Of a stretch of DNA of 64,000 bases, positions 11,202-43,236 are shown one piece after another. Source of the stretch: Halichondria panicea. Taxonomy: Eukaryota; Porifera; Demospongiae; Suberitida; Halichondriidae. The stretch is taken from the NCBI RefSeq assembly GCF_963675165.1, contig NC_087393.1, positions 3,539,502 to 3,603,501 on the forward strand, in the 5' to 3' direction. The notes under the pieces are model-generated. The model made no database searches and had not been told where the DNA came from. It was given only the letters and a program-made list of their open reading frames with translations. Every line of letters starts with the position of its first letter. Positions within the stretch are counted from its first letter, which is position 1. The position numbers and the translations under genes were made by a program.

Positions 11202-11238
11202 ATGGATGACCCGGCCAACAGACCAAGGTAGGTACGAC

Positions 11239-11286
<48 letters not shown>

Positions 11287-12103
11287 GTTTCACATGTTAT
11301 CATATGCCAAACCTCTACATAAATATAGCTCCAAAAGAGGACGAAGATATTGCATTGGATCAGTACTCATCAGAGACAGACAAGCAGCCCCTTATAGGAG
11401 CAGAGCCACCAAGGCCAATGCTAGCTGCTGAAGTGCACCCCCCACCCAGGTCACTGATCCCCCACAGTATAATCAACAAGTAAACCCATGAATTCGGTAC
11501 TACATATACCTTTAGGCCGAAAACCTTTCATTAACATAACTTGCCACCACAATGTATGGCTGCCACAGCTACAAATAGGAAGTGAATTAGCAAATTATTT
11601 TACGCAGGCAAGGCAAGCTGACACTGCTGTCGTGGTTACACAACTGACAAACTTTGTCTACGAACACGACATTCCATTTTGGATCGGGTCAGATCTGTTT
11701 ATTTACTTATCACTGATCACCGTACTCTGCTGTCTAGTGTTTGGAATTGTTGCAACAATATTCGCATGTGAGTTGAGAAAAATGCTACAGTGCAGCAGTC
11801 TTGTAGATCATACATGACATCAAATGTTTGGATGTTCTTGTCAGTGGGGAATTGTCCAATGTACCAATTAAAACCTTAAGTGAGGGGTGATTCTCTTTGT
11901 AACATACCATAACTCTCTTTCCCTATACTCATAAATATCAAACACACCAGGCTCGCTACAAGAGGAAGAATGGACAAATTGAGGAGGCCAAATACTCAAC
12001 CAAGGGCTCCATTGTCTGCAGTATACTTGTTGTTGTACTGTGTGTCGTTTCCACACTGATCTACTTAGCCGTAAAATACATTCCTCGGAAGAAACTTTTT
12101 TAA
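11202..12103 (+). pseudogene. CD225/dispanin array gene 1 (probably degenerate)
   Basis: Paralogue-style exons are visible: exon 1 11202-11227 (MDDPANRP), exon 2 from about 11329, exon 3 11608-11778, exon 4 11951-12103 ending TAA. Against the array pattern exon 1 has one extra base (26, not 25), which shifts exon 2 out of frame. The usual ATG in exon 2 is TTG. Exon 2 runs into a stop (AACAAGTAA) where siblings have a donor, and the exon 3 donor GTGAGA has become TTGAGA. Exons 3 and 4 are still open: the membrane segment has the double-Cys motif (TVLCC), and exon 4 keeps ARYKRKNGQIEEAK and a second hydrophobic segment. Unusual splicing could rescue it, but the accumulated changes favour a dying copy. 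Confidence 0.6.
11239..11282. repeat. (CA)n microsatellite
   Basis: About 22 CA units in intron 1 of array gene 1, directly after its donor. Confidence 0.95.
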
Positions 12104-12944: not shown

Positions 12945-12954
12945 GGGAATTTCC
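12945..12954 (+). promoter_or_regulatory. NF-kB consensus upstream of array gene 2
   Basis: GGGAATTTCC is a perfect fit to GGGRNNYYCC, 180 bp upstream of the gene 2 ATG. It lies at the start of a block (CAATGAATAATGTGGCAGCC...) that is repeated upstream of genes 3, 4 and 6. Confidence 0.55.
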
Positions 12955-13124
12955 TGGACAGGCAATGAATAATGTGGCAGCCAGCCAAGTGTCGGTACAC
13001 AGGCATGTTATCAAATTACAGCTACTAGTACTGTGTACAGAGCAGTGTTCAGAGCAGTGTTTAGCTAGCTAGCTATAGACTGTTACAGCTATATCTATAC
13101 ACAGGGGTATAGAAAAACAGTATT

Positions 13125-15328
13125 ATGGCTGACCCAACAGAATACCAAGGTAAGTATACAACACACTATTACTGTATAAAGCAGCATGTCTACTTATAAT
13201 TATGCTTTCACATCAGTTGGCTGCACTTGCACTACAGGCATTCAATATTAACCTCATGGATTGTTACTGTCTCACTATGGCAGTTATTGACCTGTTATTT
13301 ATTTTGTTGAGATACCTCCTGCATGACAAACTGAAAGAATAACTATATATATATACATGTCTACATAAACAAAATGCAATTGTCATACTTCAAAGCAATC
13401 AAACTTCATTGATCTATACGCCCAGCTCCAGAACTAGACCAAGAGAAGGCAATGGATCAGTACCCACCAGAGACAGACAAGCAGCCCCTTATAGAAGCAG
13501 AGCCACCAAGGCCAATTCTAGCTCCTGAAGTGCACCCCCAGCCAAGATCACTGGCTCCCCCTGGCCCCCAGCAGTACCCCCCACAGTATGGACAAGGCCC
13601 ATTTGGCAATATCAATGTGAGTATCTTTAAGTTTCAAGCCAAGGAAACCAGGTGCATGCATGGGTTTCCAGACTAATTAATTACTGCTAACAGTATAATT
13701 ATGTGAATTAAGAGCTACTATTTCTAGACTGGAGGTACATTATAGCATACTGCTACTATAATTATCACCCACCACTATAATTATAATTATAGCAGTGCAT
13801 GGCTGCCAAAACTACATACGTCAAGTGTAATTATTATCCTATTTTAAAATTATACTTGCAGGCAAGGCAAACTAACACTACAGTGGTGGTTTCACAACAA
13901 CCGACAAGTGTTGTCTACCAACAAGATGTTCCAGCTTGGGTCGGGTCAGATTTGATTATTTACTTCTCAATATTCACCATGCTTTGTTGCGGATTACTGC
14001 CTGGAATTGTGGCCTTGATGCTCGCTTGGGAGGTGAGAAAATGCTACACTAAAACTAGTGTTCAAGCTGGCGCTGTGCTAATGCCTCTCGCCATGTTTTT
14101 GCTTTCGCTCAAAAGTATTAGAGTGTTATCTATAATGAATTTTATATTAAAGTTAGCTTATCTATATAAAGTCACTGAGAAGAAAAGACTTATTTACATG
14201 CATCTATTGTAAGTTATTATTTTTTGTATTATGTGGCTTACCAGGACATCAAGAAAGAAGAAAATTGATTCTTCCAGGATCTGTAGTTCAGTGTATATAA
14301 TATCTAAGAAGAAAAGACCTGTGTACATGCATATTGTTATCTATATTGTTATATGGTAGTGTTTTGTGGCTTACCAGGCCCTCAAGACAAAGATGATTCT
14401 GCCAGGAGGATCTGGATCTGGATCTTGGATATTATTTTCTCACACATGGGGAATGAGCGCGCATGCGCATTACATCCACAGGAATAATTAAAGGGTGTGT
14501 CCAAAGAGATCAATTTTACAAATGGCTACTGTACTGCTAGCTAGCTGTTTTAACAGATATTTTCTGAGTATTGTAGCTAACAAAAAGCTAGCGCTTTAGT
14601 GCAAGGCTAACTCATATGTTGAATAGAAAGTTTGTGCGGACAGATGATGCTATGAAAGATTCTGAAGAGACTGCAACAGCCTTCAATGTGAGTCAAACTA
14701 GCCATAACTCGAGAAAGAAGCTTTAGTTTGCTAATCCACGAATCAAAATCCAAGAGAACGTGGCTAGAAGCCTATAGAAGCTGTTAGTTTTCGTCGCATT
14801 GTAACCGTTGAGCAGTTATAGCTGGAATACACACACACACACACAGACAGACACACACACAGTCAGCTTTACCGTATCCCTCGTGCGGCTACGCCTCGAG
14901 GCATAATAAATGTATAGCCTGCACACACAGGCTTTTAGAGCATCACTTTTCTTGGCAAAACTATATTTTAATTAGATGACATTCTATGGTGAAAACCCAT
15001 TATACTGTGATATGTAGGGATTCCTTTCCTTACCATATTAGGTTGACTTATCAACATTTTGGGTGTACTCTAACTGGTAGTTGTCTAAACAGACGTAGAT
15101 TGCTGCGGTATAGAGATAATACCCCGAAGCAACCCCATACCACCCACCCACTACTCTAATTATATATAGGCTCGCAGCAAGAAGGAGATTGGACAAATTG
15201 AGGAGGCCAAATCCTGGTCTCTGGCTGCCATTGTCTGCAATGTACTCGCTGCTTTACTGGGTGTGGCTGCCATTGTGTCTGTCTCTGTGTACTACGGCGT
15301 CACAATCAGCAGTGTTTACATACGTTAA
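13125..15328 (+). CDS. CD225/dispanin (IFITM-like) membrane protein, array gene 2
   Basis: Exons 13125-13149, 13426-13616, 13862-14032 and 15170-15328 give 181 residues. The start is the 25-nt exon MADPTEYQ, shared with genes 4-6. Residues 1-72 are a proline-rich cytosolic tail with DKQPLI, an acidic dileucine sorting motif. Exon 3 holds the first CD225 membrane segment (SDLIIYFSIFTMLCCGLLPG) with the CC pair that is palmitoylated in IFITM proteins. Exon 4 starts with the conserved cytosolic loop (ARSKKEIGQIEEAKSW) and ends in the second membrane segment. Family members restrict membrane fusion (IFITM) or act in vesicle traffic. The role here is inferred. Exon 3 is identical to that of gene 3. 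Confidence 0.88.
14050..14920. repeat. insertion in intron 3 of gene 2 with a CA-rich tail
   Basis: Gene 3 lacks this roughly 870-bp block between intron positions that otherwise match. Its right part carries TAGAAGCCTATAGAAGCTGTT, TTGAGCAG, a short CA tract and CCTCGTGCGGCTACGCCTCG. Related text (TAGAAGCCTATAAAAGCTCTT ... TTGAGCAG ... CA repeat) lies at 50550-50640. This suggests a dispersed element carrying its own microsatellite. Confidence 0.55.
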
Positions 15329-17570: not shown

Positions 17571-17580
17571 TGGAATTTCC
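17571..17580 (+). promoter_or_regulatory. degraded NF-kB-like site upstream of array gene 3
   Basis: TGGAATTTCC differs in the first base from the GGGAATTTCC found at the same place in the blocks of genes 2, 4 and 6. Confidence 0.3.
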
Positions 17581-17942: not shown

Positions 17943-18829
17943 ATGGATCAGTACCCACCAGAGACAGAAAAGCAGCCCCTTATAGGAGCAGTGCCACCGA
18001 GGCCAATGCTAGCTCCTGAAGTGCATCCCCAGCCAAGATCACCGGCCTCCCAGCAGTACCCCCCACAGTATGGACAAGGCCCATTTGGCAATATCAATGT
18101 AAGTATAAGTTTTTAGCCGAAGCTACATACATCAATGTATATTATTATTATCTTATTTCATATACTTGCAGGCAAGGCAAACTAACACTACAGTGGTGGT
18201 TTCACAACAACCGACAAGTGTTGTCTACCAACAAGATGTTCCAGCTTGGGTCGGGTCAGATTTGATTATTTACTTCTCAATATTCACCATGCTTTGTTGC
18301 GGATTACTGCCTGGAATTGTGGCCTTGATGCTCGCTTGGGAGGTGAGAAAATGCTACATTTATAGCCATGCACACAGGCTTTATGGCATAACTTTTTTGG
18401 CAGATGACATTCTATGGTGAAAACCCTACATGTATGTAGGGATTCCTTTCTTTACCATATTAGGTTGGCTTATCAACATTTTGGGTGTACTCTAACTGGT
18501 AGTTGTCCAAACATATGTAGATTGCTGTGGTATAGAGATAATATCCCGAAGCAACCCCATTAAATCTGCAATGCAGCAATATCTTTTACATATAGAGGGG
18601 TGATTAAAATAAACGTACGCAAACCTATGAACACAAACAACCACCCACCCACCACTATAATTATATATAGGCTCGCAGCAAGAAGGATATTGGACGAATT
18701 GAGGAGGCCAAATCCTGGTCCCTGGCCGCCATTCTCTGCAATATACTCGCTACTCTACTGGGTGTAGCTGCCATTGTGACTGTTTCTGTGTACTACGGCA
18801 CACTCAGTGTAGTTTATTATAATAACTGA
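17943..18829 (+). CDS. CD225/dispanin protein, array gene 3 (first exon lost)
   Basis: Exons 17943-18098, 18172-18342 and 18671-18829 give about 161 residues if translation starts at the internal Met (MDQYPPETEKQPLIG). The homologous exon 1 (about 17725-17750) has lost its ATG (GTATACAGTTGACC in place of GTATGGCTGACC). Exon 2 has a 2-bp insertion (GAACTATAGACC) that would shift the frame before this Met, so only internal initiation keeps the protein. An in-frame ATG at 17898 in the former intron is an alternative start. The rest is intact: EKQPLI dileucine-type motif, LCC membrane segment, ARSKKDIGRIEEAK loop and second membrane segment ending LSVVYYNN. Exon 3 equals that of gene 2. Confidence 0.72.
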
Positions 18830-21127: not shown

Positions 21128-21137
21128 GGGAATTTCC
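21128..21137 (+). promoter_or_regulatory. NF-kB consensus upstream of array gene 4
   Basis: GGGAATTTCC lies 223 bp upstream of the gene 4 ATG, in the same upstream block as gene 2. Part of that block (CAATGAATAWTGTGGCAGCC) is doubled here. Confidence 0.55.
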
Positions 21138-21350: not shown

Positions 21351-24300
21351 ATGACTGACCCAACAGATTATCAAGGTAGGTATAAAACACACAAATCTTA
21401 TTGTCAAAATAATTCTGAAGCATAAATTAGCATGTCTATAAACCGCATAGCAAGAAATTTTCGAGGGGGCTTTTTTGTGGGTTAACAATCCTACACGAAA
21501 ATGATTCCACAAAAATTGTTCTTTAAGTGTGTGCATGTGTGTATGCATGCGCATGGTGTGTGAATGTGTGTGAAGATGATGGTGTATAGAATAAACAGAG
21601 GGCATACGTTGCAACTACTTTCGCAGCTCTCCACACAGTCAGTATCAGAATTATCCGCTATAACGTGCAAAGATTTAAGGTGTGGTCTGTGAGTGCTTCC
21701 AGTAAACAGTCACCCATGAAATTGACGAAAAGCTTTTTTAGAGGTCATTCCACGAAATTGAAGGACCTCGAAAATTTCGCGCTATAGGGTACTTATAATT
21801 ATACTTTCACATCATTTGGCTGCACTACCTGACAAACTGAAAAAATAACTGTATACATGCATGCATGTCTACATGGTCAAAATGCCATTGTCATGTTTTA
21901 AAAGCAATCAAGCTTCATTGCTCTATATGCCCATTTCCAGAACTAGACCAAGAGAAGGCAATGGATCAGTCCCCACCAGAGACAGACAAGCAGCCCCTTA
22001 TAGGAGCAGAGCCACCAAGGCCAATGCTAGCTCCTGAAGTGCACCTCCAGCCAAGATCACTGGCTCCCCCAGGCCCTCAGCAGTACCCCCCACAATATGA
22101 ACAAGCCCCATTCGGGACTCTGAATGCGAGTATCTTCAAGTTTCAAGCCGAGGAAACTAGGGTATAGAGAAGCCTCTTTTCTGCTTTCCAGACTAATTAA
22201 TGAACCATACAGAATTACAAACAAAAATTACTGCGTTTACTTTAGTATGTGAATTAAGAGCTATTCTAGACTGGAGATATATCATAGCTTTTTTAAGCAT
22301 GCACTACTAGTATACTACATGAATGGCTATACATAGATTAAAAAAAAAATTTTTTTTTCGAACAATTAGTATGCTTATCATAATTATACTTGCAGGCAAG
22401 GCAAACTAACACTACTGTGGTGGTTACACAACCAACAAGTGTTATCTACCAACAAAATGTTCCAGCTTGGATCGGGTCAGATTTGCTTATTTACTTATCA
22501 ATATTCATCATGCTTTGTTGCGGATTACTGCCTGGATTTGTGGCCTTGGTTTTCGCTTGGGAGGTGAGAAAATGTTACAGTAAATATATTTATAGCCATA
22601 CACACAGGCTTTTATAGCATCATTTTTAAGGTGGACTTGCAAAATTAGCTTTATTTTAAGATGACATTCTATGGTGAAAACCCATTTATATGACTGTGCA
22701 TGTATATGGAGATGCCTTTTAGTACCAATATTATTAGGTTGGCTATCAAAAAGTTTAGGTGTACTTTTCAGGGTTCTCCCCAGAAAGTTTTGTCAGAGTG
22801 GTGTTGTGCAGCGTGTGTAGCCAAAAGAGATCAACATGTCAGTCTGAATCACTCTTGATGCATTTCACACCAAATTTTTCTGTCAATAATAATTATTCTA
22901 TTTTTGAATCTTGTTTTTAGTTCAGCATGGCATCATGGTCTTCTGGGCACTAAAGTTCATCTTCTGAGGAGTTTAGGGGGTGCTTCCCTAGTGAAAAGCT
23001 GCAGCTTGAACTTAGAAAGAGAACAGTGACAGAAGCTTTGTCTGCTTATCTATCAATCTGCCACATGGCATAAGTAGCCCCACCTACAAATAATTCCGAG
23101 CGAAGTGAGGTTATGTTTGGGTCCTATTCCGAGATTTTCCGTGGCAGCAGTGGTGGATGACATCGAGGCAAAAGGAGCTTTACCTGGACTGCTGGTGAAC
23201 ATGTAGACTTTGATACTTGGCGTGGAGTCTTGGCAGATGCTGAGGGATGTCGGCTCAAAGTCTTAGGCCTCAGCTACAGCCAGGAGTAGCTAAACCGGAG
23301 CCTGGATGGACAGTTGAACTTAAATCTAGCTTTCTTGTGTGTCGATCATTATGACGTCTTTACCAGATTGAATGCACATAGACCTAGCTTTCTTATGTGA
23401 CGATTATTAGGTCCAGATTTACTTTGATATTTGATTTTACTGAGCCAAGAGTAGATAATACTCTTATCTACTCTTGACTGAGCGAGGATTTATTGCATTT
23501 AACGTACCCCTAGTAATTATTGCTGGGCTTCTATTGAAACAGCTAGTAGCTAGCAGCTGAGTTTAGTATAGCTAGCTAGCTATGAGCTAGCTGCTGATAG
23601 CTGCCTCAGAGTGGCGCTGCGCAACTCTAATATACGCTTTAGGGAGAACGCTGCTTTTAACGGTAGTTGTCTAAACAGAGATTACTGTCTTAACTGTGGT
23701 AGAGATAATATCCTGAAGCAACCCATTACAGCTGTTTGCGTAGACCTTGCAAAATACTAAATCATTCACTGCATTACCACAAAACCATCATACAATGTTG
23801 CTATGCAGTATTAGATACGTGTGTACATGTAAATAAAAAGTGAGCAATGATGGCTTCTAAAACTAGACTATGGAAACTCATAGAACCGGGGAGGATTTGA
23901 TGTAGAAAATGGTCTACCAACGCCTTATGCTGAGACTTGCATGCTGTACAAAAAATAGTTACGCTAAAGAACCTGCAGATGGCTGACTCGCTCACTGCAG
24001 TATACCGGTTTTTGACCAACAAGTCCAAACGTATAAGCAACAGGTTTTCCAAAACAATCTTTTGTGATCTGTCAGTGTTTGAGGTCCTTTGCAGTACTTT
24101 GTACCAGTTTTTTCAGCCTGAAACTTCTTCACACTGCTTTCCATACATGCAGTGGACAGATTAGTAGCTATAATTAATCAGGTATGCAAGTCCCAGCCCA
24201 TTCTCCACTTCAAATCCTCACCATAATTTGTACCACTTTATAGCGGGTAATTTTCGCCGGTATAATTTTTTCTTGTAGATTAGCCATTTTGTTATTAGCA

Positions 24301-24968
24301 AAAAGTACCTGTTACAGTAGAACCTCGATTATCCGAAACCTCGATTATCCGGCTTGGCAGTTTTCTTTTTAATCAGATTAAACAATTCAGAAAATGGGCG
24401 TGTCCCTCAAATGCGCATGCGCGTTGCAGCTGTTACCATGGAGACATGCCTGCTTATCTTCTGCGCATGCACAGACAACCATGTGGCACTGCTGTTTATC
24501 AATAAAGTGGGTGGATTAAGGCGTGGTTTATCTATTCGATTATCCGGCATATTCACTTATCCAGCCTCCTTCTGGAACCAAGGTGTCCGGATAATTGAGG
24601 TTCTACTGTATACAAGTTCTAGAAGCCATCATCGCTCAGGACTACATGTTGTTAGCATAGACATTGTATATGGTGATTTTGTGGTAATGTAGTGAGCTGT
24701 TAAAATCTATGCAAACAGCTGTAGTCTAAAAAGCAATGCAGCAATTTCCTTCACGTATATAGAAGGGTGATTGGAACAAACCAATGCAAACTTTAAAAAC
24801 AAACAAACAACCACTCACACCACACTATAATTATAGGCTCGCAACAAGAAGGAGATTGGACGAATTAAGGAGGCCAAATCTTGGACACTGGCTGCCATTG
24901 TCTGCAATGTACTCACTGCTCTACTGGGTGTGGCTGCCATTGTGTTTGTCTACAGATGTTATAACTGA
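21351..24968 (+). CDS. CD225/dispanin protein, array gene 4
   Basis: Exons 21351-21375, 21941-22125, 22396-22563 and 24837-24968 give 169 residues. Start exon MTDPTDYQ. The exon 2 acceptor is 6 bp downstream of that in gene 2, dropping two residues without changing frame. The exon 2 donor is GC (AAT|GCGAGT), a rare GC-AG intron or a decaying site. The protein has DKQPLI, the IIMLCCGLLPG membrane segment, the ARNKKEIGRIKEAK loop and a short C terminus (VYRCYN). Intron 3 is 2.27 kb because it holds two transposon relics: a CAGGG-ended element and a pogo-like MITE. Confidence 0.82.
22769..23653. mobile_element. 885-bp hAT-like non-autonomous element
   Basis: Ends CAGGGTTCTCCCCAGAAAG and, inverted, CAGCGTTCTCCCTAAAGCG. 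Both flanks read CTTTT (22764-22768 and 23654-23658). Paralogous introns lack the block and read straight across (ACTCTAACTGGTAGTTG), which confirms an insertion. No transposase frame is visible. CAGGG-type ends suggest hAT; a 5-bp duplication is unusual for classical 8-bp hATs. Confidence 0.75.
24315..24608. mobile_element. pogo/Tigger-like MITE, copy 1 (294 bp)
   Basis: Inverted ends CAGTAGAACCTCGATTATCC are flanked by TA on each side. It is about 90% similar by eye to 52798-53047, including the internal GCGCATGCGC and GTTACCATGGAGACATGCC. The open frame across it is not a transposase. Confidence 0.88.
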
Positions 24969-26553: not shown

Positions 26554-27856
26554 ATGGTTGACCCAACAGAATACCAAGGTAGGTACAAAACATATACATC
26601 TTAGTTTGTATAAAGCAGCATGTCTACTTAATTATAATTATGCTTTCACATCAGTTGGCTGCACTTGCACTACCTGACAAACTGAAAAAATAACTGTGTA
26701 CAGTCAAAATGCTTCAAAAGCAATCAAGTTTCATTGTTCTTTACATGCATGACCAGTTCCAGAACTAGACCAAGAGAAGGCAATGGATCAGTACCCACCA
26801 GAGACAGACAAGCAGCCCCTTATAGGAGCAGAGCCACCAAGGCCAATGCTAGCTCCTGAAGTGCACCCCCAGCCAAGATCACTGGCTCCGCCTGGCCCCC
26901 AGCAGTACCCCCCACAGTATGTACAAGGCCCATTTGGCAATATCAATGTGAGTATCTTTAAGTTTCAAGCTGAGGAAACCAGGTGCATGCATGGGTTTCC
27001 AGACTAATTAATTACTGCATGCTAAGTGACTGAGAACGTTCACTTTTAGTGTGTGAATTAAGACTAGAGGTATATATATCATAGCTTTTAAGCATGCACT
27101 ACTAGTAACTACTATAGCAGTGCATGGCTGCCAAGCTACATACACATCAATAGTGTAACTATTTATATACTTGCAGGCAAGGCAAACTAACACTGCTGTG
27201 GTGGTTACACAACCGCCAAGTGTTATCTACCAACAAGATGTTCCAGCTTGGGTCGGGTCAGATTTGATTATTTACCTATCGATATTCACCGTTCTTTGTT
27301 GCGGATTCCTGCCTGGAATTGTGGCCTTGATGTTCGCTTGGGAGGTGAGAAAATGCTACTCTATAGCCATGCACACAGCATCATTCTTCTTGGCAAATTA
27401 ATTAGCTTTTATCAGTATTCTAAGATGACATTCTATGGTGAAAATCCATTTATACGTGTATGTAGGGATTACTTTCTTGGCCATAGTAGGTTGGCTATCA
27501 AAAGTTTGCTAACCGGTAATTGTCCAAACAGACGTAGATTGCTGTGGTATAGAGATAATATCCCGAAGCAACCCCATTAAAAGTCTAAAAAGCAATGCAG
27601 CAATATCTTTTACATATAGAGGGGTGATTAAAACAAACCCACGCAAACCTATGTAATCAAACAACCACCCACCCACCACTATAATTATATATAGGCTCGC
27701 AGCAAGAAGGAGATTGGACGAATTGAGGAGGCTAAATCCTGGTCCCTGGCCGCCATTTTCTGCAATGCGATCGCTGTTCTACTGGGTGTGGCTGCCATTG
27801 TATTTGCCTTTTTATACTACAGCATCAAAATCAATGGAACTTGGCTATCAGCTTGA
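26554..27856 (+). CDS. CD225/dispanin protein, array gene 5
   Basis: Exons 26554-26578, 26763-26947, 27177-27344 and 27695-27856 give 179 residues (two more if the acceptor CCAG at 26756 is used; both keep frame). Start MVDPTEYQ. The tail carries DKQPLI. The first membrane segment has VLCCGFLPG, followed by ARSKKEIGRIEEAK and a second membrane segment. The C terminus reads through IKINGTWLSA, sequence that is 3' UTR in sibling genes. All splice sites are standard. Unlike genes 2, 4 and 6 it has no GGGAATTTCC upstream. Confidence 0.88.
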
Positions 27857-29212: not shown

Positions 29213-29690
29213 CAATGGATGGTGATGGTATTCAGTTTGCTGACAACAAGAACAATGACCTCTTAATTACGTGAATAAGGCTGTTTGGTGTGCTACTGAC
29301 GAGCTCCCTACTGGCCCCCCCAATATGCCCATTTCCAGTTGGCCCAGAACGTACACTCAGCTCTTCATTAACTTAGCTCTATTCATCACTGCAGCTGTCT
29401 GTGAGTGCATGCTAACAACATCATCATTGGTAACCGTTACAAAATCTCTACTAAAATTGCAGCTACAACTCTCTGTCCCGAAGCTACAGTGATGACAACA
29501 GCAATCAGCACATCCACTCCTCCGACTATTCCATACACCACTTATTATGATATACTCCACCAAAATATCCCCCATGCAACACACCCACCAACAACAAAAC
29601 CCCACCTAAGACCACATTTCAAAATAATTGCTCTGGCCGCCATAATGGGTGTGGTTGTTTGGACACTGACAAAGAACAAGTAACAAAGAG
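29213..29690 (+). other. unexplained open stretch
   Basis: Unlike other spacers, this has two overlapping plus-strand frames. One, from 29271, has a hydrophobic run (LFINLALFITAAVC). The other, from 29405, is Thr/Pro-rich and ends IALAAIMGVVVWTLTKNK with TAA at 29681-29683. A possible start at 29213 (MDGDGIQFADNK) closes after 19 codons. It might be a wrecked membrane-protein gene, but I cannot join the parts or name a family. Confidence 0.25.
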
Positions 29691-29734
29691 TGGAGGTAAG
29701 AAATTTACTGGAAACTACTTACAGACATGATGGT

Positions 29735-30719: not shown

Positions 30720-30729
30720 GGGAATTTCC
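30720..30729 (+). promoter_or_regulatory. NF-kB consensus upstream of array gene 6
   Basis: GGGAATTTCC lies 197 bp upstream of the gene 6 ATG, at the head of the same upstream block as in genes 2 and 4. Confidence 0.55.
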
Positions 30730-30916: not shown

Positions 30917-32806
30917 ATGGCTGACCCAACAGAATACCAAGGTAGGTGCAAAACATCTTCATTGTAACGCATACGTATATCAATTATGCTGTCACAAAAC
31001 TGCACTGCCTAGACCCACAAACTGTATACATATACATGTATACATGCATAGTCAAAATGCCATTGCCATGCTTTAAAAAGCAATCAAGTTTCATTGTTCT
31101 ACACATGCATGACCAGTTCCACAACTAGACCAAGAGAAGGCAATGGATCAGTACCCACCAGAGACAGACAAGCAGCCCCTTATAAGAGCAGAGCTACCAA
31201 GGCCAATGCTAGCTCCTGAAGTGCACCCCCAGCCAAGGCCAATGCTAGCACCTGAAGTGCACCCCCAGCCAAGATCACTGACCCCCCAGCAGTACCCCCC
31301 ACAGTATGGACAAGGCCCATTCGGGACTATGAATATTCGTCTAGGAAACCACTGGCAGGTGCACGGTATAGAAAAGTTTTCACGATTGTAGTATAAATAA
31401 ACAATCATATCCTCCGCTAGTTAAGCAACATGTCATCTCCTACAGATGCTCAGGAGCTTCCTAGGTCCAAGCGTTGTGCATTCAACGTCCTTTGCTGCAG
31501 TTATAAGCTCTTCTTCGCTAAAATGTATCTAAACCACTCCCATGGACTCATGGAGGCTTATATAGCCATCTTATTAGAGAGCAGCTTCCGTGATTTTGCC
31601 GTCGCTTTGGAGTCTTAGTACCGCCAACTCTGGAAAGCATGGCTTCTTTTTGTTTGCTTACTTTCCTGAACAAATGGAAAACACCTAGAAAACTGTGCAT
31701 GCACAGGGCTGTATATCATATAGCCGTTGACCAATGAATCGTGACGTAAGTGCGATATAAGTAATAATTATACCATGGGCAAGATGTACTTATATGTGTT
31801 CTTAGTGTCCCAATGACCCGATCAAGGGCTTGCCTGAGGGATACTATAACCATAGTTACCGAATGCACATGATCTAACTCATTTAGCTCCCACTATTTAT
31901 TCATTGGCTAAACCAGACAATTCCTCAGAAAAATTGTCTTTTGAATCAAAGACTTAGCAGCAGCTTTATGTCAAAGTTTTACTCCTACTGAACACGCTGA
32001 AGGAGTTCTGAACACTCCCGTTGCCCGGTTCCCTGTATAGTTAGCCTGAACCTATATTAGCTAAATTAATAGCTACCATGCACTGTACGAGTCAGCTAGC
32101 TCAATGTTGAATTCCAATGCAAAAACCCACCAGTAAGTATATGCGTTTATACGCTTATAATCCAGTAAGCGCTAATAATCTCGTTTCTATGGTATTCATA
32201 TATAATTATGCAGGCAAGGCAAACTAACCTACAACCGACAAGTCGTATCCACCTACACAATTTTCCAGCTTGGATTGGGTCAGATGAGCTTGTTTATATC
32301 TCCGTATTCACCATGATTTTTTGCGGAATTGTGCCTAGATTTGTGGCCTTGCTGCTCGCTCATGGGGTGAGAAAATTAGTGCTACAGTACAATTATAACT
32401 GTACGACCACACCCACACAGGCTTTATAGTATCACTTTTAGTGGTGGACTTTGACATATTCTATGGTGAAAACCTATTTACACAGAGGTATTCTTTTCTT
32501 TACCATAATAGGTGGGTTATTAAAAGTTTGGGTACAGCAGTCTTAATCGTGGTAGAAATAGTGATACAGCAATTTCCTTCATGTGGGGAGGCATGGGGTG
32601 ATGTGATTCAAACACACCCAATGCAATTGAACTAAAACAAACAACCATGCACCCACCACACTATATAGGCTCGCAAACTGAGGAGGGCTGGACAAATTGA
32701 TAAGGCCAGATTATGGACCAAGGACGCTATTTCCTGCAATGTACTCACTATTGTACTGGGTGTGTTTGTCATAGTTATCCCTATTGCAATACATGCACAT
32801 ACATAA
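30917..32806 (+). CDS. CD225/dispanin protein, array gene 6 (diverged)
   Basis: Exons 30917-30941, 31117-31358, 32214-32366 and 32669-32806 give 185 residues. The start MADPTEYQ is kept. The usual acceptor is mutated to TTCCAC; the upstream GACCAG at 31111-31116 keeps frame. The Pro-rich tail has a 12-residue duplication (PRPMLAPEVHPQ twice). The sibling donor after exon 2 is lost (AATATTCG), so the exon probably runs on to CAG|GTGCAC, turning intron into coding. Exon 3 has compensating indels and keeps IFCGIVP with one Cys, not two. Exon 4 is open (ARKLRRAGQIDKAR, then a second membrane segment). Intron 2 contains an unrelated 62-residue frame (31430-31618), not interpreted. Confidence 0.7.
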
Positions 32807-33260: not shown

Positions 33261-33335
33261 GGTACGGGATCACTCCAGCTGTAAATACGTAGTCAAGGCT
33301 TCATTACGTATTTTCAGCTGAAGTGATCCCGTACC
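33261..33335. repeat. 75-bp hairpin repeat
   Basis: GGTACGGGATCACTCCAGCTG pairs with CAGCTGAAGTGATCCCGTACC. Single arms of the same sequence occur near 20771 and 42259, marking a dispersed fold-back family. Confidence 0.75.
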
Positions 33336-34703: not shown

Positions 34704-35741
34704 ATGATGGAAGGCAACACTGTCCCAGAGAGAGAGAAACAGCCGCTGTTACCAAAGAAACAACACCCCCAGGCAAGACCACAGGCTCCCCAGCTGTACC
34801 GCCAACAGGTAGGAGAGCAGAATAACTTTTTACACGGAAAATCCATCCCAATACTATAACAGTAGCTGAAATTAGCAGTTAGAATGATGTAGTAATACAA
34901 ACATGTAGGATATCCTGAAACATACATTACAATTAGACATTTGCATGTGTGTACATGGCCCTAGTAATAACTAAGCGGCTCAATCTTACTATCGCTATAA
35001 TTGTACAGCTGTAAAAATAAATGATAAATAAATGTAGCAGTCTACATTTATCTGTACATGTACATGTATAATGTTCAAAAATCACATAAATGAGTTAATT
35101 ACACAAGATACGTAGTTCACAATAGACTCTACACTCACACGCATGCATACGAAACATACATGCATGTATATATACAGGTGAGAGAGACTGTGCTGGTGAC
35201 AAGAGAGCCTATAGTTGGCGTGTACACATACAGACAGCCTAACATTCCCACTTGGATTGGGTCCGAATACGTTGTCTACGCCTCAGTGCTCACTATGCTC
35301 TTTTGTGGCATTCTGCCAGGAGTTGTGGCTCTGCTCTTAGCATGGGAGGTAAGGCGCAGTAACTATATAATTATTGCTGTAAGCCTGCGTAACTTGGCTA
35401 CAATACACATGTACATTTATTGCATAATGGACTATTCAGTCAACTTGTCAGCGTTGCAGTCGGGGACTGTTTTCACATTTCTACGTCAAAAACCGTACAG
35501 AATAATTTATTATGAAACATGCATGCAAAAATAACTTGGTACGTACACAAATTCCAGCTACCCACGTACACACACACTATAATTATAGGCTCGTAGCAAG
35601 AGGGAGACTGGACAAATTGAAGAGGCCAGATCATGGACCGTGGGGGCCATTCTCTGCAATGCACTTGCTTTCACACTGGGTTTGTCTGCCATTGTGTCTA
35701 TCTCTGTGTACTACGGCTTAAAAGGACAACACATTCAATGA
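34704..35741 (+). CDS. CD225/dispanin protein, array gene 7
   Basis: Exons 34704-34808, 35178-35348 and 35589-35741 give about 142 residues starting MMEGNTVPEREKQ. The frame is open further upstream, so a short extra 5' exon is possible. The tail carries EKQPLL, an acidic dileucine motif. Exon 3 encodes TWIGSEYVVYASVLTM with a single Cys (LFCGILPG). Exon 4 encodes ARSKRETGQIEEARSW and the second membrane segment, ending YYGLKGQHIQ. A deletion of about 48 bp relative to gene 8 removed the old stop and recruited 3' UTR as a new C terminus. Confidence 0.83.
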
Positions 35742-36167: not shown

Positions 36168-38740
36168 AGAACGGCCTTCATTATGTTGCCATAACTTTAT
36201 TATAGCTTACTCCATTTCAAAATGTCATATATCATTGAATTCCTTAATTGTTAAAACGCACTTCTATCTAGAGGTGCTATATAAGCTCCAGAAGGTAGCA
36301 TCATTTTCTATGTAAAAAGTAAAAAAAGTATAATATGTGAAAATTGTTACTGTCACATGCTATTCTCACATAACATACAAGATTTTGTAGTTCGATGCGA
36401 ACATAAAATTGACAACATGCATGACCACATCTTTAAATGAATGTACACTTCACACACTGCATGTGAATGAATATATACATGATGTGTATACTTGTAGTAC
36501 ACACTACAAGACAAACGTACATAGATTCACAATCGACCTGAGTGTCTGGAAAACAATCTCGATAAAAATAATTTAATGTGTGTGTAAGGTTAACATTCTT
36601 CTACAGCTATATAATTATTGCAACCTGAGTATTCTCACAACATAATTATTGTGACATAATTATTATAAACAGCTTGGGCAGCAAAACTACCGACTAAAAA
36701 CAACACAATGACTTGACCGCTAACTACAAAGAATGAAGCCTATGAGAGACTACCTGAAATGGCTGTAATTAATTAATAATTCATACATCACCAATCTTGC
36801 AGCTGTATAGCTGGTGATCCACCCACAAGAAGCAACCCAGCTTATATGTCGACCTAGAGGGTAGCAAAGCCCTCACTGCAACAAAGGATGACCATAATAC
36901 TATGTTATTCATTGAAATAAAGTAGCCACTGACATTTTCTAAGAGGAGTTGGGTGCATGGTACTTTAAAATAAAATTGACCAGAAAAGAAGCCTACGTTG
37001 GAGTGAGACAGTCGAGTTCTGACAATGACCCCTCAATACCCACCACAGAGAATGAGGCACACACTAGTGTGACTGCTGACACTAGGTTAAAAGTTTCTAG
37101 CTATATCACAGTAATGGTTTTTTCTAAAGAACATTTAGATCTATACTTAATCACTAAACAATTCTTTGTTCTTTGATCATTTACTATAATAACCCTGTTA
37201 AAGTTTGTTTTGAATACAATCGTCAATGTACATGTAGAAGCATGTGTAAACATGATATATATCGGAAAGATAGTCTTTAGATTCATAATACACAAGTTAC
37301 TCGAGAAAGCTATGATGGAAGGCAACACTGTCCCAGAGAGAGAGAAACAGCCGCTGTTACCAAAGAAACAACACCCCCAGGCAAGACCACAGGCTCCCCA
37401 GCTGTACCGCCAACAGGTAGGAGAGCAGAATAACTTTTTACACGGAAAATCCATCCCAATACTATAACAGTAGCTGAAATTAGCAGTTAGAATGATGTAG
37501 TAATACAAACATGTAGGATATCCTGAAACATACATTACAATTAGACATTTGCATGTGTGTACATGGCCCTAGTAATAACTAAGCGGCTCAATCTTACTAT
37601 CGCTATAATTGTACAGCTGTAAAAATAAATGATAAATAAATGTAGCAGTCTACATTTATCTGTACATGTACATGTATAATGTTCAAAAATCACATAAATG
37701 AGTTAATTACACAAGATACGTAGTTCACAATAGACTCTACACTCACACGCATGCATACGAAACATACATGCATGTATATATACAGGTGAGAGAGACTGTG
37801 CTGGTGACAAGAGAGCCTATAGTTGGCGTGTACACATACAGACAGCCTAACATTCCCACTTGGATTGGGTCCGAATACGTTGTCTACGCCTCAGTGCTCA
37901 CTATGCTCTTTTGTGGCATTCTGCCAGGAGTTGTGGCTCTGCTCTTCGCATGGGAGGTAAGGCGCAGTAACTATATAATTATTGCTGTAAGCCTGCGTAA
38001 CTTGGCTACAATACACATGTACATTTATTGCATAATGGACTATTCAGTCAACTTGTCAGCGTTGCAGTCGGGGACTGTTTTCACATTTCTACGTCAAAAA
38101 CCGTACGGAATAATTTGTTATGAAACCTGCATGCAAAAATAACTTGGTACGTACACAAATTCCAGCTACCCACGTACACGCACACACTATAATTATAGGC
38201 TCGCAGCAAGAGGGAGACTGGACAAATTGAAGAGGCCAGATCATGGACCGTGGGGGCCATTCTCTGCAATGCACTTGCTTTCACACTGGGTTCGTCTGCC
38301 ATTGTGTTTATCTCTGTGTACTACGGCGCCATGTACAGCTGAGCAAACTTGAACTTAACACTACATTCAGTAGTTTTAAAAGGACAACACATTCAATGAT
38401 TTATACCATGCACACATAAGTATGCAACAACAAGGACTTCTTACTACAGAATACATACATAATTATACTGTATACAACGTAATACATACTAAAGTTGTGT
38501 ACAGTGCAGTTGTTGCTTATAGTGCATGCCAAAGATTTTCTAAACAATTACAACTACAGAGGAGTTATTAACATAAAGTTTTTAGACTATGTATGCACTT
38601 ATGCATGCCACCATTCAACATGCAGCAGTTACAAAACACAACACTTTGGGTTTGCATGTGTTGCAGCAGCACAACTGTAAACATTGAAAAGTGAACACTG
38701 CAGCATAATAATATTATAGAACCTTTGCATGCGTGAAACT
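36168..38740. repeat. segmental duplication, copy B
   Basis: Tandem counterpart of copy A. Coding exons, introns and flanks are nearly identical from about 37110 to 38340, with a handful of substitutions and small indels. Similarity ends shortly after GCGTGAAACTT. Confidence 0.88.
37312..38342 (+). CDS. CD225/dispanin protein, array gene 8
   Basis: Exons 37312-37416, 37786-37956 and 38199-38342 give about 139 residues. It is almost identical to gene 7, with the same EKQPLL tail and LFCGILPG segment. One difference in exon 3 changes LLLAWE to LLFAWE. It ends YYGAMYS, without the extended tail of gene 7, and this is probably the ancestral ending because the sequence gene 7 deleted is still present here. 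Confidence 0.83.
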
Positions 38741-39166: not shown

Positions 39167-40425
39167 ATGGATAACATCCAAGAGCCACCACCATGTAAGT
39201 TAACAAATATATATATAAGAATCTTAGGTCTATACAATCAGTTAATCACCATGTTGTCAAAATCACACACAGCATATGAGTTCATTACAAGAGAGCTTAT
39301 GAAATTGTCAGACCAGCCACCACGTAAGTTACACTGTACTCACTACAGTATATCATTCAAAAAGCTTAGTTTGTACCTTGCATCATGTGTACACGTACGG
39401 CGGTTGCCTTAATTATCACTCCCTATGTTTTACAGCTTACGAGGCCCATGTAGATAAACAAAGGGGCGTGAACTCAACACAGAATGGGCGTGGCATTACA
39501 GACATCAATATTCTAAGAGTTGAGGTGAGTACTAACAGTAACACAAACCTAACACTATCTAGAAAGGTGATCTTTACCATATAAGTACAAACTGTGCAGA
39601 TATATAATTACGTATTTGCAATCTCGTAACCTGTTACTGTTGTGTGTTAGTCTCCACCACTATGTACACACAATTATAAGAAGCACCCAGATACTTAATA
39701 AACACCAGACTCTACATACTGTATTAACCTCCGCAGTACGAGGCCACCCGCATCCAACCAGAGAGGATGATCATAGTGTCGCTAGTGACAACGCTAGTGT
39801 GTCTGCTATTGTGCTCATGGATGTGTAGTTTGGGTGCCCTGTATTTGAGTCACGAGGTAAGGCAACACGTTGCAGTGAAACCTGTCTATAGTGTATAGTA
39901 GAGCATTTTCAATCCCTCTTTCTTTGCATCTATCGGGCATACGGGTGGTTCAACTATACATGTATATACATTATAATTATTATGTGTGCCTGAATGCATT
40001 GATTTTATGTCGAAAAATCGGCCTGCTAGTGCAGATTGAAAACACATGCATGGAGGGAGACATGAGGCTTATTGCTACATCAGGTTTCGAAGTGTCCAAG
40101 TAGTTTTAATCTAGACACATACACATGTACGTACGAATTAAGTATAATTTGTACATTCCTAGTAATTATAAGACACTAAATACTCGTAGAAAACTAATGC
40201 TAATTACATATTAAAATTCCATTGAATAAACTACTGACTATAAGCATGTACATGTAAACACACACGCACATGCAGGCACTGAAGTCCAAGCACAATGGAG
40301 AACACAAAAGGGAGAGAACACTAGTACGCTACGTCACTGTGCTCAACATCTTCTCTCTTGCGTCCGGCGTGGTGATTCTTATTACCATGATTATCGTCAT
40401 GGTGGACCTACCGAAACTACACTAG
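39167..40425 (+). CDS. divergent CD225/dispanin-like protein, array gene 9 (two possible first exons)
   Basis: Exons 39167-39194, 39436-39524, 39737-39856 and 40276-40425 give 128 residues. A second possible first exon, 39299-39323, has the same phase and also fits. With the first, the N terminus is MDNIQEPPPSYEAH; with the second, MKLSDQPPPYEAH, which creates a PPPY motif of the kind bound by WW domains (NEDD4 family). Exon 3 has a Cys-rich membrane segment (TTLVCLLLCSWMCSLG), then exon 4 ALKSKHNGEHKRERT and a second membrane segment. Exon number, phases and hairpin topology match the array, but the CD225 signature is weak. Confidence 0.68.
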
Positions 40426-41565
40426 ATATTATTATGTCAATAAATTAGGCTTAGGAAGCCTCTCACTTGTATACCGTGCATGTGATGCGAAAAACACATT
40501 CCATAGTCATATTACAGCTGATTGCTTCCATAACGGTGGACCTACTAAAACAGTACCAGGTTATGCACATGATACTTAAACGGTTCACATCTCACGGTAG
40601 CCATTGAATACAATATTAGCGCGAAATTTTCGCTGTTTTCGAGAGTAAGTAATCCTCCACGAAAACTGTTGCATGAACATAGCTAACAGCGAAGGAAACG
40701 TGCATCACTTACCCCATAGCGGGAAATATTTTTAGAGGCAATTCCACAAAGGAAGCACCTCGTGCCATGGTATGCGTATATGAAGTACTGTCAGAACAAA
40801 TATCACTATGTTTTAATCCTGTTATGAAGAAATAATTTGAGTAGTGTGATAACAGCACTGAAGTACTAAACTAATAACTTAAAATATTATGTTAAGTTTA
40901 TCAATGCTATATGAACGCACAGCACTCTGGCATCCAGGTGAGCAGAACCAGATTCAACAAACCAACAGACTACTATACCCGTGGCCGCCCACGCGCGCCT
41001 CGGGTAACAAACAAACAGAAAGACACACTGGACTACTATAACCCCTGGCCGCCTACGCATCTCGGGTTAATAAGTGATGTGTTGCTGATACAAATCTGAA
41101 GTATACTTTTCACTGAATAAGATGGGAGGTAAAAAGGTAAAAACTCGTTTTTACCATCTTCTTATTCAACTGTTTATACTATAGAAAAGTTGTGCATTTG
41201 GACAAATGATTCTTTTGCACGGTTGCAAGGTTGTGTAAACAGAGGACACTTTTGTTGCAGGTAGGGCCAACGTAAAATGAAAGTGTTAATCTTGTTTGCA
41301 ACCATTACAGCCCACACAAACACACATTAGCTGTTTACTTAGGTACAAGCCATGTGTGTTAATGAACAGTTTAAGCTCCATTGAGCATCAGTGAAACCTG
41401 TCCACACATTAATTACTGTGACACGGGGGAATCAAACTATTTACTACAATTTATAAGTGTATTGTAGAAAGTATAGCTACATTATTAGACCAAGGGGAAA
41501 ACTGTTGTGCCCTAGAATTACTACACTGTCAATTGAAAGAGCACAAGAAGCAGACGTACAAAGAA
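40426..41565. other. intergenic, array genes 9-10
   Basis: No gene. It holds fragments of the GGTAATTTTC-type repeat (about 40615-40770) and two inverted-orientation copies of the CCCGAGGYGCGYGTGGGCGGCC repeat (about 40970-41070). Confidence 0.4.
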
Positions 41566-43236
41566 ATGTCAGGTAAGCTAGGCTACAGTATCTACACTGT
41601 GTGCATATATCATGCATGCACTCACTCAATCGAGCTAGGGCACAGAAGTGCAAACCCTCGGCCTGATGTGCGGACAAAGGGCACATGTTTCGTAACTAGG
41701 GGAGTGTTGTACGTACAAATTAAACCGATATACATGTAGTGTGACAAAGTCTAGCAGCAACTAACAAGAAACTAAATAACTACTGTATGATAAGAACCAG
41801 TTTCCTGATATGACTCTCACCTATAGAAGGCTTTGAAAACGGTGTTGCTACAGTTTTAGGCACCTTGGGTCAATGAGCTGAACTAGATGCTAGAGATAAC
41901 AATTAATTCATATTTATATCACATGCAGGGCGAGAGGGTGGGGAGACAGTGTACATGCAGGGCTACAGTCGGGGGAACACTAGCACACAACCACTCATGT
42001 CCGATTACAACACACAGTCAACCCAGGTGAGTACAAATACATGTACATGCAGTACTGATGCTAAATGGTACAAGCACACAGTGTATATCGTATAGCAGGT
42101 ATAAATTATATAAACGTTTGCGTTTTTGGATGATCGAGTATGTACGACGAACATTAATTTATACCCACTGTGGCATAGCAAAGTCAGCAAATTCAGCAAA
42201 GAAGCCTTGAGTCTTCGAACTACAATCATAATTCTAGCTTTCTACTTTTCCATTGTTCTTGGTACGGGATCACTTCAACTGCAAATAATGTCTCGAATAA
42301 AGGCCGGGTATAGCTAGCAGCACGCAGCCAACGTGCAAGTTCGCTTTTTAAACGCAGTGCTATGGCAGCCAGGTGAGCAGACTCCAAATACACAAACAGA
42401 CAAACCAACGGACTACTATAACCTGTGTCTGCTCACGTGTCTCGGGTTAATCATCATGCATGCACAAACTGGTCCACCTACATCCATGCAGGGCCTAGTG
42501 ATGACATCCCAGCCTGTAGCAATCATTGGGACCACTATACTAGTCTCTGTTGACGAGGTGATGAATTACAACCCCGACAAGCAGTTGGTCTGGGCTATAT
42601 GTAACCTCCTCTTCTGCTGTTTTCCCTTGAGCTTGATTGCATTCATATTCAGTGTACAGGTATGTAAGTGATTACACAGTTAACATTACATGAAAATTGG
42701 CCTCCACAGCACTATATAACAATGCACACATCTGTACAGTATACGTATAGCCTCAGGCAAGCAAAAAGGATGTTCTAGCACATGTATGTATGTAGGTGCA
42801 AGTAGAGTATTCAGCGTACATGCATGTACATAATTATACAGACAAGATTGCATGAATTTTCATCATAAACTGGAAACTCCAACAAAATAACTCTCTGATT
42901 CTCTGACACTGAATTCAACAGTTTCAGTCCACTATATTTATTTACTGTCCTACACAAAAAATAGTGTATAAAACCTCGGGGTAAATACCTTTACAAAGAA
43001 GAATCTATTACCTGACCTTCGAGCCATCTTGATAAGGCACTAAGCTCCACACACACTCACACATGTACACACAGGCACTGGCCACACAGGAACAGAACAT
43101 CAAAGCTGCTCATAAGTTCAACAAGCTCTCGTGTGGCTGCAACACTGCCAGCCTAGTGATCGGCCTTCTAGGCTACCTGGGCATCCTGGGTGTGGCCATA
43201 TGGCAAATAATACTGGCTGTGGATAGGCAACTGTGA
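41566..43236 (+). CDS. CD225/dispanin protein, array gene 10 (most canonical)
   Basis: Exons 41566-41572 (7 nt), 41929-42026, 42492-42659 and 43075-43236 give 144 residues. The coding part of exon 1 is only ATGTCAG. The tail is Gly/Ser/Tyr-rich (VYMQGYSRGN), not Pro-rich. Exon 3 has the textbook CD225 pattern: DKQLVWAICNLLFCCFPLSL, with the Trp, the CC pair and the following Pro. Exon 4 keeps the Ala/Lys loop (NIKAAHKFNKLS) and a Gly-rich second membrane segment (VIGLLGYLGILGVAIW). Of the ten genes it is closest to vertebrate IFITM/PRRT/TMEM91-type dispanins and may represent the ancestral member. Confidence 0.88.

What the first reader, a model, noticed from the sequence alone, without database searches (positions are those of the whole stretch)
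11202..43236. Ten-member tandem array of IFITM-like CD225/dispanin genes in a probable sponge
Ten same-strand copies of a four-exon design are visible: tail exons, a first membrane exon ending in phase 0 at AWE, and an ARSKKE/IEEAK loop plus second membrane segment. The array grades from canonical (gene 10) through distant (9) and paired (7, 8) to fresh copies (2-5). Vertebrate IFITM members of this superfamily block virus-cell fusion. A large local expansion in a non-bilaterian would suggest independent recruitment of this fold for defence or vesicle traffic. The defence role is inference.
Basis: partly seen in the sequence, partly recalled or inferred. Interest (0 to 1): 0.87.

Follow-up and report, generated by a model that had tools for sequence, protein, structure and literature searches.

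The report
Sponge tandem array of dispanin genes
A breadcrumb sponge carries a row of about ten related small membrane-protein genes from the family that includes the human virus-blocking IFITM proteins; it is a real local gene expansion, closer in gene design to the PRRT1 branch than to IFITM, and what it does is still untested.

Summary
The array is real. Ten same-strand CD225/dispanin-like genes lie at 11,355-43,236; nine of ten pass the Pfam CD225 cut-off, gene 9 does not. The organism is the demosponge Halichondria panicea: genes 2-5 are four RefSeq 'uncharacterized' proteins. Genes 2, 4, 5 and 6 have four exons; gene 3 lost its first start, gene 1 looks dead, and only two exons were found for 9 and 10. 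'IFITM-like' is too narrow: the gene design (intron phases 1-0-0) matches a second array on the same chromosome that NCBI names PRRT1-like, and the genome holds about 38 CD225 loci. The window subfamily was found only in this array, with no named relative outside the species. Its tail keeps an acidic dileucine signal, so endolysosomal sorting and control of membrane fusion is the best-supported mechanism. Copies evolve by duplication and gene conversion. The array lies opposite, apparently inside an intron of, a MARF1-like gene. A shared kB-like promoter site hints at inducibility. Expression and defence are untested.

The parts
11355..12103 (+). g1, probable pseudogene: tail remnant 11355-11462 (TTG for ATG), TM1 exon 11608-11772, TM2 exon 11951-12103
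   Evidence: CD225 38.8 bits on TM1+TM2; tail donor out of phase, TM1-exon donor reads TTGAGA
13125..15328 (+). g2 (RefSeq LOC135351254): exons 13125-13149, 13426-13616, 13862-14032, 15170-15328
   Evidence: Model identical to P0002; CD225 42.3 bits
17943..18829 (+). g3 (LOC135351257): coding exons 17943-18098, 18172-18342, 18671-18829; exon-1 start codon lost
   Evidence: Model identical to P0003; lost start; CD225 43.6 bits
21351..24968 (+). g4 (LOC135351255): exons 21351-21375, 21941-22161, 22396-22563, 24837-24968
   Evidence: Model identical to P0004; uses donor GTATAG 36 bases past the decayed GCGAGT; CD225 41.5 bits (with the shorter exon)
26554..27856 (+). g5 (LOC135351256): exons 26554-26578, 26757-26947, 27177-27344, 27695-27856
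   Evidence: Model identical to P0001; CD225 43.3 bits
30917..32806 (+). g6: exons 30917-30941, 31117-31358 (donor CAG|GTGCAC inferred), 32214-32366, 32669-32806; open, dN/dS near or above 1
   Evidence: Open four-exon frame with GT-AG at all three junctions; no RefSeq model found; dN/dS; CD225 33.9 bits
34707..35741 (+). g7: exons 34707-34808, 35178-35348, 35589-35741
   Evidence: CD225 30.3 bits
37315..38342 (+). g8, recent duplicate of g7: exons 37315-37416, 37786-37956, 38199-38342
   Evidence: CD225 32.2 bits
39734..40425 (+). g9, divergent: TM1 exon 39734-39856, TM2 exon 40285-40425; no tail exon found
   Evidence: CD225 18.7 bits, below cut-off
42492..43236 (+). g10: TM1 exon 42492-42659, TM2 exon 43075-43236; no tail exon found
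   Evidence: CD225 44.2 bits; also found in the genome-wide search
12945..12954 (+). kB-like GGGAATTTCC upstream of g2; same site at 21128-21137 (g4) and 30720-30729 (g6), one-base variant at 17571-17580 (g3)
   Evidence: all 7 matches of the surrounding block lie in the array
47079..53743 (-). Opposite strand: RRM, CCCH-like, NYN and RRM_MARF1-like exons of a MARF1-like gene
   Evidence: NYN pieces match MARF1 structures
3696..7550 (-). Opposite strand: LOTUS/OST-HTH repeats of the MARF1-like gene

Best explanation
This is a species- or lineage-specific tandem array of dispanin (CD225) genes in Halichondria panicea, with about six or seven intact members. It descends from the same four-exon ancestor as the PRRT1-like dispanin array on the same chromosome and has grown by duplication and gene conversion. 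Each protein should be a small type II membrane protein: a cytosolic, disordered, proline-rich tail; a hydrophobic helix that enters the membrane beside one or two cysteines that could be palmitoylated; a short basic cytosolic loop with an invariant arginine; and a spanning helix. The tail's acidic dileucine signal ([DE]KQPL[LI]), with a PPQY in g2-g6, should be read by clathrin adaptors and Nedd4-type ubiquitin ligases and place the proteins on endosomes and lysosomes. There they would modulate SNARE-driven fusion of endosomes or phagosomes, which in a filter-feeding, phagocytic animal means the handling of engulfed microbes and viruses. Shown: sequence, gene structure, motif conservation, mosaic exons. 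Inferred: topology, location, fusion control, defence.
For: CD225 over cut-off in 9 of 10, in 0 of 8 decoys. Phase-0 intron between the two helices, as in nearly all eukaryotic dispanins surveyed (PMC3282796 passages), with GT-AG ends in 9 of 10. Intron phases 1-0-0 shared with the PRRT1-like array; profile-profile E 9.9e-11 over 73 columns. P, E, K, Q, P and L of PExxKQPL are invariant in the 7 aligned members g2-g8, although tails of the g2 and g7 groups differ at dS 0.7-1.0 over 33 codons; a dileucine signal arises in about 3% of shuffled tails. Arginine six residues before the loop glycine in 8 of 10 (g1-g8), the place of IFITM3 R85 (PMC11730294 and PMC7665892 passages). Model of g5: residues 1-90 mostly low confidence and without structure, then helices 101-114, 116-135, 138-180. 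Conversion: g2/g3 TM1 exon 171 of 171 bases identical within a 198-base identical tract, 20 of 285 different in the other two exons, p 8e-5; g2-g7 dS 1.29 in the TM1 exon, 0.25 in the TM2 exon. Other animals: a CD225 PRRT1 gene is up about 6-fold in symbiotic Hydra (PMC6019070 passages); SynDIG4 and IFITM3 are sorted to endosomes through AP-2 (PMC11798926 passages).
Against: No expression, localisation or infection data were available. In a clam study the PRRT1-annotated transcript is 148.6-fold HIGHER in healthy than in parasite-infected animals (PMC4769524 passages), so invertebrate PRRT1-like genes are not simply induced by infection. The GxxxG motif (PMC7665892) is GxxxE or GxxxK in g1-g8. 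PPxY arises in 17% of shuffled g2 tails and is absent from g7/g8. g1 and g6 show dN/dS near or above 1 in the TM2 exon, g6 also in the TM1 exon against g2-g5, so part of the array may be decaying. The model has mean pLDDT 63.7 and its fold searches gave no informative match. P0002 has no significant PDB relative. No ISRE-like enrichment (1 match, 2.2 expected).
Confidence: 0.57

Rival explanations
1. The array is an inducible antiviral system that works as vertebrate IFITMs do, stiffening membranes to block virus fusion.
For: Same superfamily; cysteine pair at the helix in g1-g5; kB-like site at the same place in the g2, g4 and g6 promoters and as a one-base variant in g3, in a block whose matches all lie in the array; even mycobacterial members give moderate influenza resistance in human cells (PMC4488726 abstract).
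Against: GxxxG not kept; hydrophobic moment of the first helix of g2/g5/g7 0.05-0.32, no higher than in the PRRT1-like array (0.09-0.34) or PRRT1 (0.05-0.38), and no IFITM3 value was computed; ISRE-like sites not enriched; kB-like sites no more numerous than chance (3 against 2.5), and the copies share descent; in the PRRT1-like array 1 of 5 first exons has another kB match upstream and none has GGAATTTCC; PRRT1-annotated clam transcript lower in infected animals.
Confidence: 0.2
2. The proteins are trafficking partners of particular receptors or channels, as SynDIG4/PRRT1 is for AMPA receptors, and copies differ in cargo.
For: The sister array is PRRT1-like; SynDIG4 uses an AP-2 signal to reach endosomes (PMC11798926 passages).
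Against: No cargo is known; the one window protein tested (P0002) does not match PRRT1 at E up to 10.
Confidence: 0.12
3. The array is mostly neutral copy-number drift: a tandem family kept alike by conversion, with few members under selection.
For: g1 broken, g3 start lost, g4 and g6 original donors decayed; dN/dS about 0.3-1.3 among g2-g5 by exon and about 1 or more for g1 and g6 in the TM2 exon.
Against: Open frames and GT-AG junctions in g2-g8 and an invariant tail core in g2-g8; g2-g5 against g7/g8 have dN/dS 0.25-0.32 in the TM1 exon; even g1 has 0.42-0.54 against g2-g5 in that exon.
Confidence: 0.11

Closest known systems
PRRT1-like dispanins of the same genome (C17:662-682 kb; P0009-P0011)
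   Same: Four exons with phases 1-0-0, proline-rich tail, one intron between the two helices, invariant loop R and G
   Different: P0009 matches mammalian PRRT1 (E 1.7e-14); the tail scanned has PPVY but no dileucine signal, and GxxxA; the window genes have [DE]KQPL[LI] and GxxxE/K; 31-35% identity to P0001 in A4
Mammalian PRRT1/SynDIG4 (dispanin D)
   Same: Proline-rich tail plus CD225; an extra N-terminal exon (PMC3282796); sorted to endosomes (PMC11798926)
   Different: Uses a YxxPhi signal; not matched by P0002 at E up to 10
Vertebrate IFITM1-3 (dispanin A)
   Same: CD225 domain, tandem array, splice site between helices, concerted evolution proposed for the array (PMC3282796)
   Different: Two exons; AP-2 endocytic signal of the YxxPhi type (type recalled; signal); GxxxG motif; interferon control
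PRRT2 / TUSC5 (dispanin B)
   Same: CD225 with an R-SNARE-like loop arginine (PMC11730294 passages)
   Different: No sequence comparison made here; vertebrate DSPB genes have two exons

Membership tests
Dispanin / CD225 superfamily (PF04505) | CD225 profile match over the curated cut-off | tested here: met
   9 of 10 (g9 below), 0 of 8 decoys
Dispanin / CD225 superfamily (PF04505) | Splice site in the loop between the two helices | tested here: met
   Phase-0 GT-AG intron in g2-g10 (9 of 10); donor lost in g1; rule from PMC3282796 passages
Dispanin / CD225 superfamily (PF04505) | Two hydrophobic helices near the C-terminus | tested here: met
   Helices 101-114/116-135 and 138-180 in the one member modelled (P0001, g5); block pLDDT 78-88 for residues 101-170, 64 for 171-180
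Dispanin / CD225 superfamily (PF04505) | Aspartate flanking the first helix and cysteine(s) at the helix | tested here: met
   D in g1-g6 and g10 (7 of 10), E in g7-g9; one Cys column invariant in all 10 rows of A1
IFITM subfamily (dispanin A) | Two-exon gene | tested here: not met
   Four exons in g2, g4, g5, g6; three coding in g3, g7, g8
IFITM subfamily (dispanin A) | GxxxG in the loop | tested here: not met
   GxxxE in g1-g5, g7, g8; GxxxK in g6; no match in g9, g10
IFITM subfamily (dispanin A) | YxxPhi endocytic signal in the tail | tested here: not met
   None in the g2 and g7 tails (2 window tails scanned); an acidic dileucine stands there instead
IFITM subfamily (dispanin A) | Amphipathic first helix | tested here: inconclusive
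   Moments 0.05-0.32, no IFITM3 reference computed
IFITM subfamily (dispanin A) | Interferon or pathogen induction | not testable with these tools
   No expression data; ISRE-like sites not enriched
PRRT1-like (dispanin D) | N-terminal tail on separate exon(s) | tested here: met
   Phases 1-0-0 as in the PRRT1-like array
PRRT1-like (dispanin D) | Direct sequence match to PRRT1 | tested here: not met
   P0002: no PRRT1 chain at E up to 10 (one member tested); linked only through the sister array
CD225 R-SNARE-like proteins | Central arginine in the loop | tested here: met
   8 of 10 (g1-g8); SNARE binding itself not testable here

The most novel reading that the evidence does not exclude
Halichondria panicea has independently built one of the largest dispanin repertoires known (about 38 loci against 14 in human, 17 in mouse, 12 in amphioxus and 4 in Nematostella in the 2012 survey). 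The window array would be a new, sponge-lineage subfamily aimed at endolysosomes by a dileucine signal, switched on through a shared kB site, and used to control fusion of microbe- or virus-bearing compartments: an IFITM-like use of the fold invented separately in a non-bilaterian.
Probability: 0.26. Interest if true: 0.75.

Novelty: new member of a known kind. Interest (0 to 1): 0.5.

Why it matters
The main text of the founding dispanin survey holds neither 'sponge' nor 'Amphimedon' (PMC3282796), and the listings I saw in six searches showed no paper on sponge CD225 arrays (some matched far more papers than were listed). A sponge Dispanin C1 (Oscarella carmela) is mentioned in PMC7653359 (passages). 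Several arrays in one sponge would show that this fold is repeatedly amplified outside vertebrates and would allow a direct test of whether membrane-fusion control by dispanins predates interferon. The genes are short, cloneable, and four already have RefSeq models.

Tried and rejected
Rejected: 'IFITM orthologues' (exon number, GxxxG, sister array PRRT1-like). Rejected: chance hydrophobic match (decoys). Revised: I first took g6 as broken because its tail donor is lost, but an in-phase GT donor lies 24 bases further on and the four-exon frame is open, so I leave it open. Revised: the g2/g3 identity is not exactly exon-bounded; it runs 11 bases up and 16 down into the introns (198 bases), so ordinary gene conversion suffices. 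Corrected on checking: I had read the clam PRRT1 transcript as induced by infection; one search shows that it is higher in healthy than in infected clams.

Led nowhere: Foldseek and VIA-align on the model listed only general helical bundles; this neither supports nor excludes a dispanin fold. The tree of 28 rows, from a chosen part of the loci, puts the ten window genes on one side of a branch with weak support (68/70) and long branches for g9 and g10, so I do not use it to place them. ISRE scan: no enrichment. kB scan: not enriched in number; kept as a lead because of position. A script was meant to print full gene models and printed none; one search then built and checked them. The census counts exon matches: by TM2 exon 12 + 6 + 2 + 1 + 1 + 7 outside the window, by TM1 exon 11 + 6 + 2 + 1, plus 10 in the window. 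It may miss divergent members and it includes copies with stops, so 38 is not a count of working genes.

Not done: no expression data, no other sponge genome, no proof that the MARF1-like halves are one transcript.
Full report
WHAT IS THERE. Six-frame reading and tblastn with exon peptides show ten + strand units between 11,355 and 43,236. The spliced proteins were scanned against Pfam: CD225 (PF04505) is the best family for all ten and passes its cut-off of 27.1 bits in nine (g1 38.8, g2 42.3, g3 43.6, g4 41.5, g5 43.3, g6 33.9, g7 30.3, g8 32.2, g10 44.2); g9 reaches 18.7 bits only. Eight decoys, reversed or shuffled in blocks of ten residues so that hydropathy is roughly kept, gave no CD225 match at E up to 0.1.

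THE ORGANISM. A protein search with the g5 model returned a 100% identical RefSeq protein, LOC135351256 of Halichondria panicea, and LOC135351254, -255 and -257, which are g2, g4 and g3. All four are named 'uncharacterized protein'. The taxonomy is Porifera, Demospongiae, Suberitida. The window is C17:3,539,502-3,603,501 of a 131.5 Mb assembly.

GENE STRUCTURE. RefSeq proteins P0001, P0002 and P0004 begin with an eight-residue exon (M.DPT[ED]YQ) found at 26554, 13125 and 21351, and g6 has one at 30917. It ends in phase 1; the tail exon and the TM1 exon end in phase 0. Models of g2-g5 translate exactly to the four RefSeq proteins, and g6, g7 and g8 give open frames with GT-AG at every junction. 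g3 has lost the first start and RefSeq begins it at the next ATG. g4's original tail donor reads GCGAGT and RefSeq uses GTATAG 36 bases further on. g6's is lost, with an in-phase GT donor 24 bases further on (my inference; no RefSeq model of g6, g7 or g8 turned up). g1 has TTG for ATG, an out-of-phase tail donor and TTGAGA for the TM1 donor, so I call it a probable pseudogene. g7 and g8 were found with three exons, g9 and g10 with two.

THE REST OF THE GENOME. A CD225 search of the same assembly gave 37 exon matches at E up to 0.001, two of them in the window. I fetched 16 stretches around the others and scanned them with two profiles built from those matches. Outside the window: C17:662-682 kb, minus strand, 11 TM1 and 12 TM2 exons; C14:2.15-2.21 Mb, 6 and 6; C14:45-48 kb, 2 and 2; C6:6.25 Mb, 1 and 1; C17:99.7 kb, one TM2; C17:852-885 kb, 7 TM2 exons, some with stops, and TM1-like frames found by eye. 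With the ten in the window this is about 38 loci, not all of them working genes. For comparison, the 2012 dispanin survey lists 14 in human, 17 in mouse, 12 in amphioxus, 9 in sea urchin, 4 in Nematostella and 1 in Monosiga, and reports loss in Trichoplax (PMC3282796, passages); a 2022 study lists 10 in Aplysia (PMC9334734, passages).

WHICH BRANCH. A search with one protein of the C17:662-682 kb array returned three H. panicea proteins that NCBI names 'proline-rich transmembrane protein 1-like' (P0009-P0011), and P0009 matches mammalian PRRT1 in the PDB (9zks and two more entries) at E 1.7e-14 over 73 residues. The gene read in full there has the same four exons with phases 1-0-0 (TM exon ends of the others). 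The window profile aligns to that array's profile, PRRT1 included, at E 9.9e-11. The window protein tested, P0002, does not find PRRT1 itself. Searches of the window subfamily in the genome return the array itself plus one weak hit on C14 (E 2e-4). A profile search of 5.8 billion proteins returned eight proteins: the four RefSeq proteins and four unnamed fragments of the same or closely similar genes, whose source organisms are not given (P0005-P0008). So this is a divergent dispanin subfamily with no named relative outside H. panicea; the search tool needs shared five-residue words, so distant sponge relatives may be missed.

TAIL AND LOOP. In the alignment of seven members (g2-g8) P, E, K, Q, P and L of PExxKQPL are invariant, giving [DE]xxxL[LI] in all seven, a classical adaptor signal (recalled). 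It is found in about 3% of shuffled tails. g2-g6 also have PPQY, but PPxY appears in 17% of shuffles, so that part is weak. The loop keeps an arginine six residues before the conserved glycine in g1-g8; in IFITM3 that place is R85, the centre of an R-SNARE-like motif needed for antiviral activity, in a protein that binds syntaxin-7 (PMC11730294, passages). The second glycine of GxxxG, needed for IFITM3 oligomers (PMC7665892, passages), is E or K here, A in the sister gene and S in PRRT1.

HOW THE ARRAY EVOLVES. g7 and g8 are identical at 1581 of 1641 aligned bases. g2 and g3 are identical over all 171 bases of the TM1 exon, in an identical tract of 198 bases, while the other two exons differ at 20 of 285 and the next stretches of intron are 81% and 75% identical (Fisher p 8e-5). 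g2 and g7 have dS 1.29 in the TM1 exon and 0.25 in the TM2 exon. These are signs of gene conversion. dN/dS runs from about 0.3 to 1.3 among g2-g5 by exon, is 0.25-0.32 between g2-g5 and g7/g8 in the TM1 exon, is around 1 or above for g1 and g6 in the TM2 exon, and 1.1-2.0 for g6 against g2-g5 in the TM1 exon. I claim no positive selection: the counts are small.

PROMOTER LEAD. The kB consensus GGGRNWYYCC has three matches in the window against 2.5 expected, so no enrichment. But all three are GGGAATTTCC at 180, 223 and 197 bases before the exon-1 ATG of g2, g4 and g6, and the core GGAATTTCC occurs four times in the window, the fourth before g3. All seven genome matches of the block around it lie in this array (that search gives lower bounds). 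g5 has no site in the 420 bases scanned, nor have g7, g8 and g1 in 800. In the PRRT1-like array 1 of 5 first exons has a different kB match. The copies share descent, so this is one observation, not four.

SETTING. On the minus strand, RRM, CCCH-like, NYN and RRM_MARF1-like exons lie at 53.7-47.1 kb (two RRM and one NYN piece over cut-off, the rest below), and the NYN pieces match MARF1 structures 6fdl and 5yaa at E 1e-21 to 1e-29. LOTUS repeats lie at 7.6-3.7 kb: one over the Pfam cut-off, three below it; a profile trained on the window's own repeats finds six strong ones there, weak pieces up to 10.8 kb and none beyond 44 kb on that strand. MARF1 has NYN and RRM first and LOTUS repeats after (recalled). 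The array therefore seems to lie inside one intron of a MARF1-like gene, on the other strand. No transcript was available to show that the halves are joined.

MECHANISM. The simplest reading is a set of endolysosomal dispanins that tune membrane fusion. Support from other animals: SynDIG4 and IFITM3 both use AP-2 endocytic signals (PMC11798926, passages); a CD225 PRRT1 gene is raised about six-fold in Hydra with algal symbionts (PMC6019070, passages). Against simple induction by infection: a PRRT1-annotated clam transcript is 148.6-fold higher in healthy than in parasite-infected animals (PMC4769524, passages), which the authors' section treats as a set of resistance candidates. These are other genes in other animals, so they bear on plausibility and no more.

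VERDICT. A true, previously unnamed tandem expansion in a known superfamily, in a sponge, with several features that make function testable. Not IFITM in the strict sense; defence untested.

Noticed in passing
56301-62811: Tandem family of multi-helix proteins: a 671-aa open frame made of two copies (56301-58313, -), 60397-61455 (-) and 61837-62811 (+); no Pfam family at a usable E-value.
   Followed up: partly
3696-53743, minus strand: MARF1-like gene whose NYN/RRM and LOTUS halves flank the array; exons around 8036-8587 are repeated at 8655-9395.
   Followed up: partly
7094-7165: tRNA-Gly (tcc) on the minus strand inside the MARF1-like region.
   Followed up: no
L034-L038 (C17:852-885 kb): Another CD225 array: seven TM2-like exons a few kb apart, several with stops, beside TM1-like frames with five successive cysteines.
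   Followed up: partly
L039-L041 (C14:2153, 2179, 2199 kb): Three nearly identical CD225 genes spaced about 20-26 kb, so that cluster is also recently duplicated.
   Followed up: no
P0005 (protein found): A 100-aa fragment from a 5 kb contig resembles the TM1 exon of g2-g5 but equals none of them: an allele or a further copy in another individual.
   Followed up: no
29405-29683: Open frame on the + strand ending in a hydrophobic stretch, between g5 and g6.
   Followed up: no
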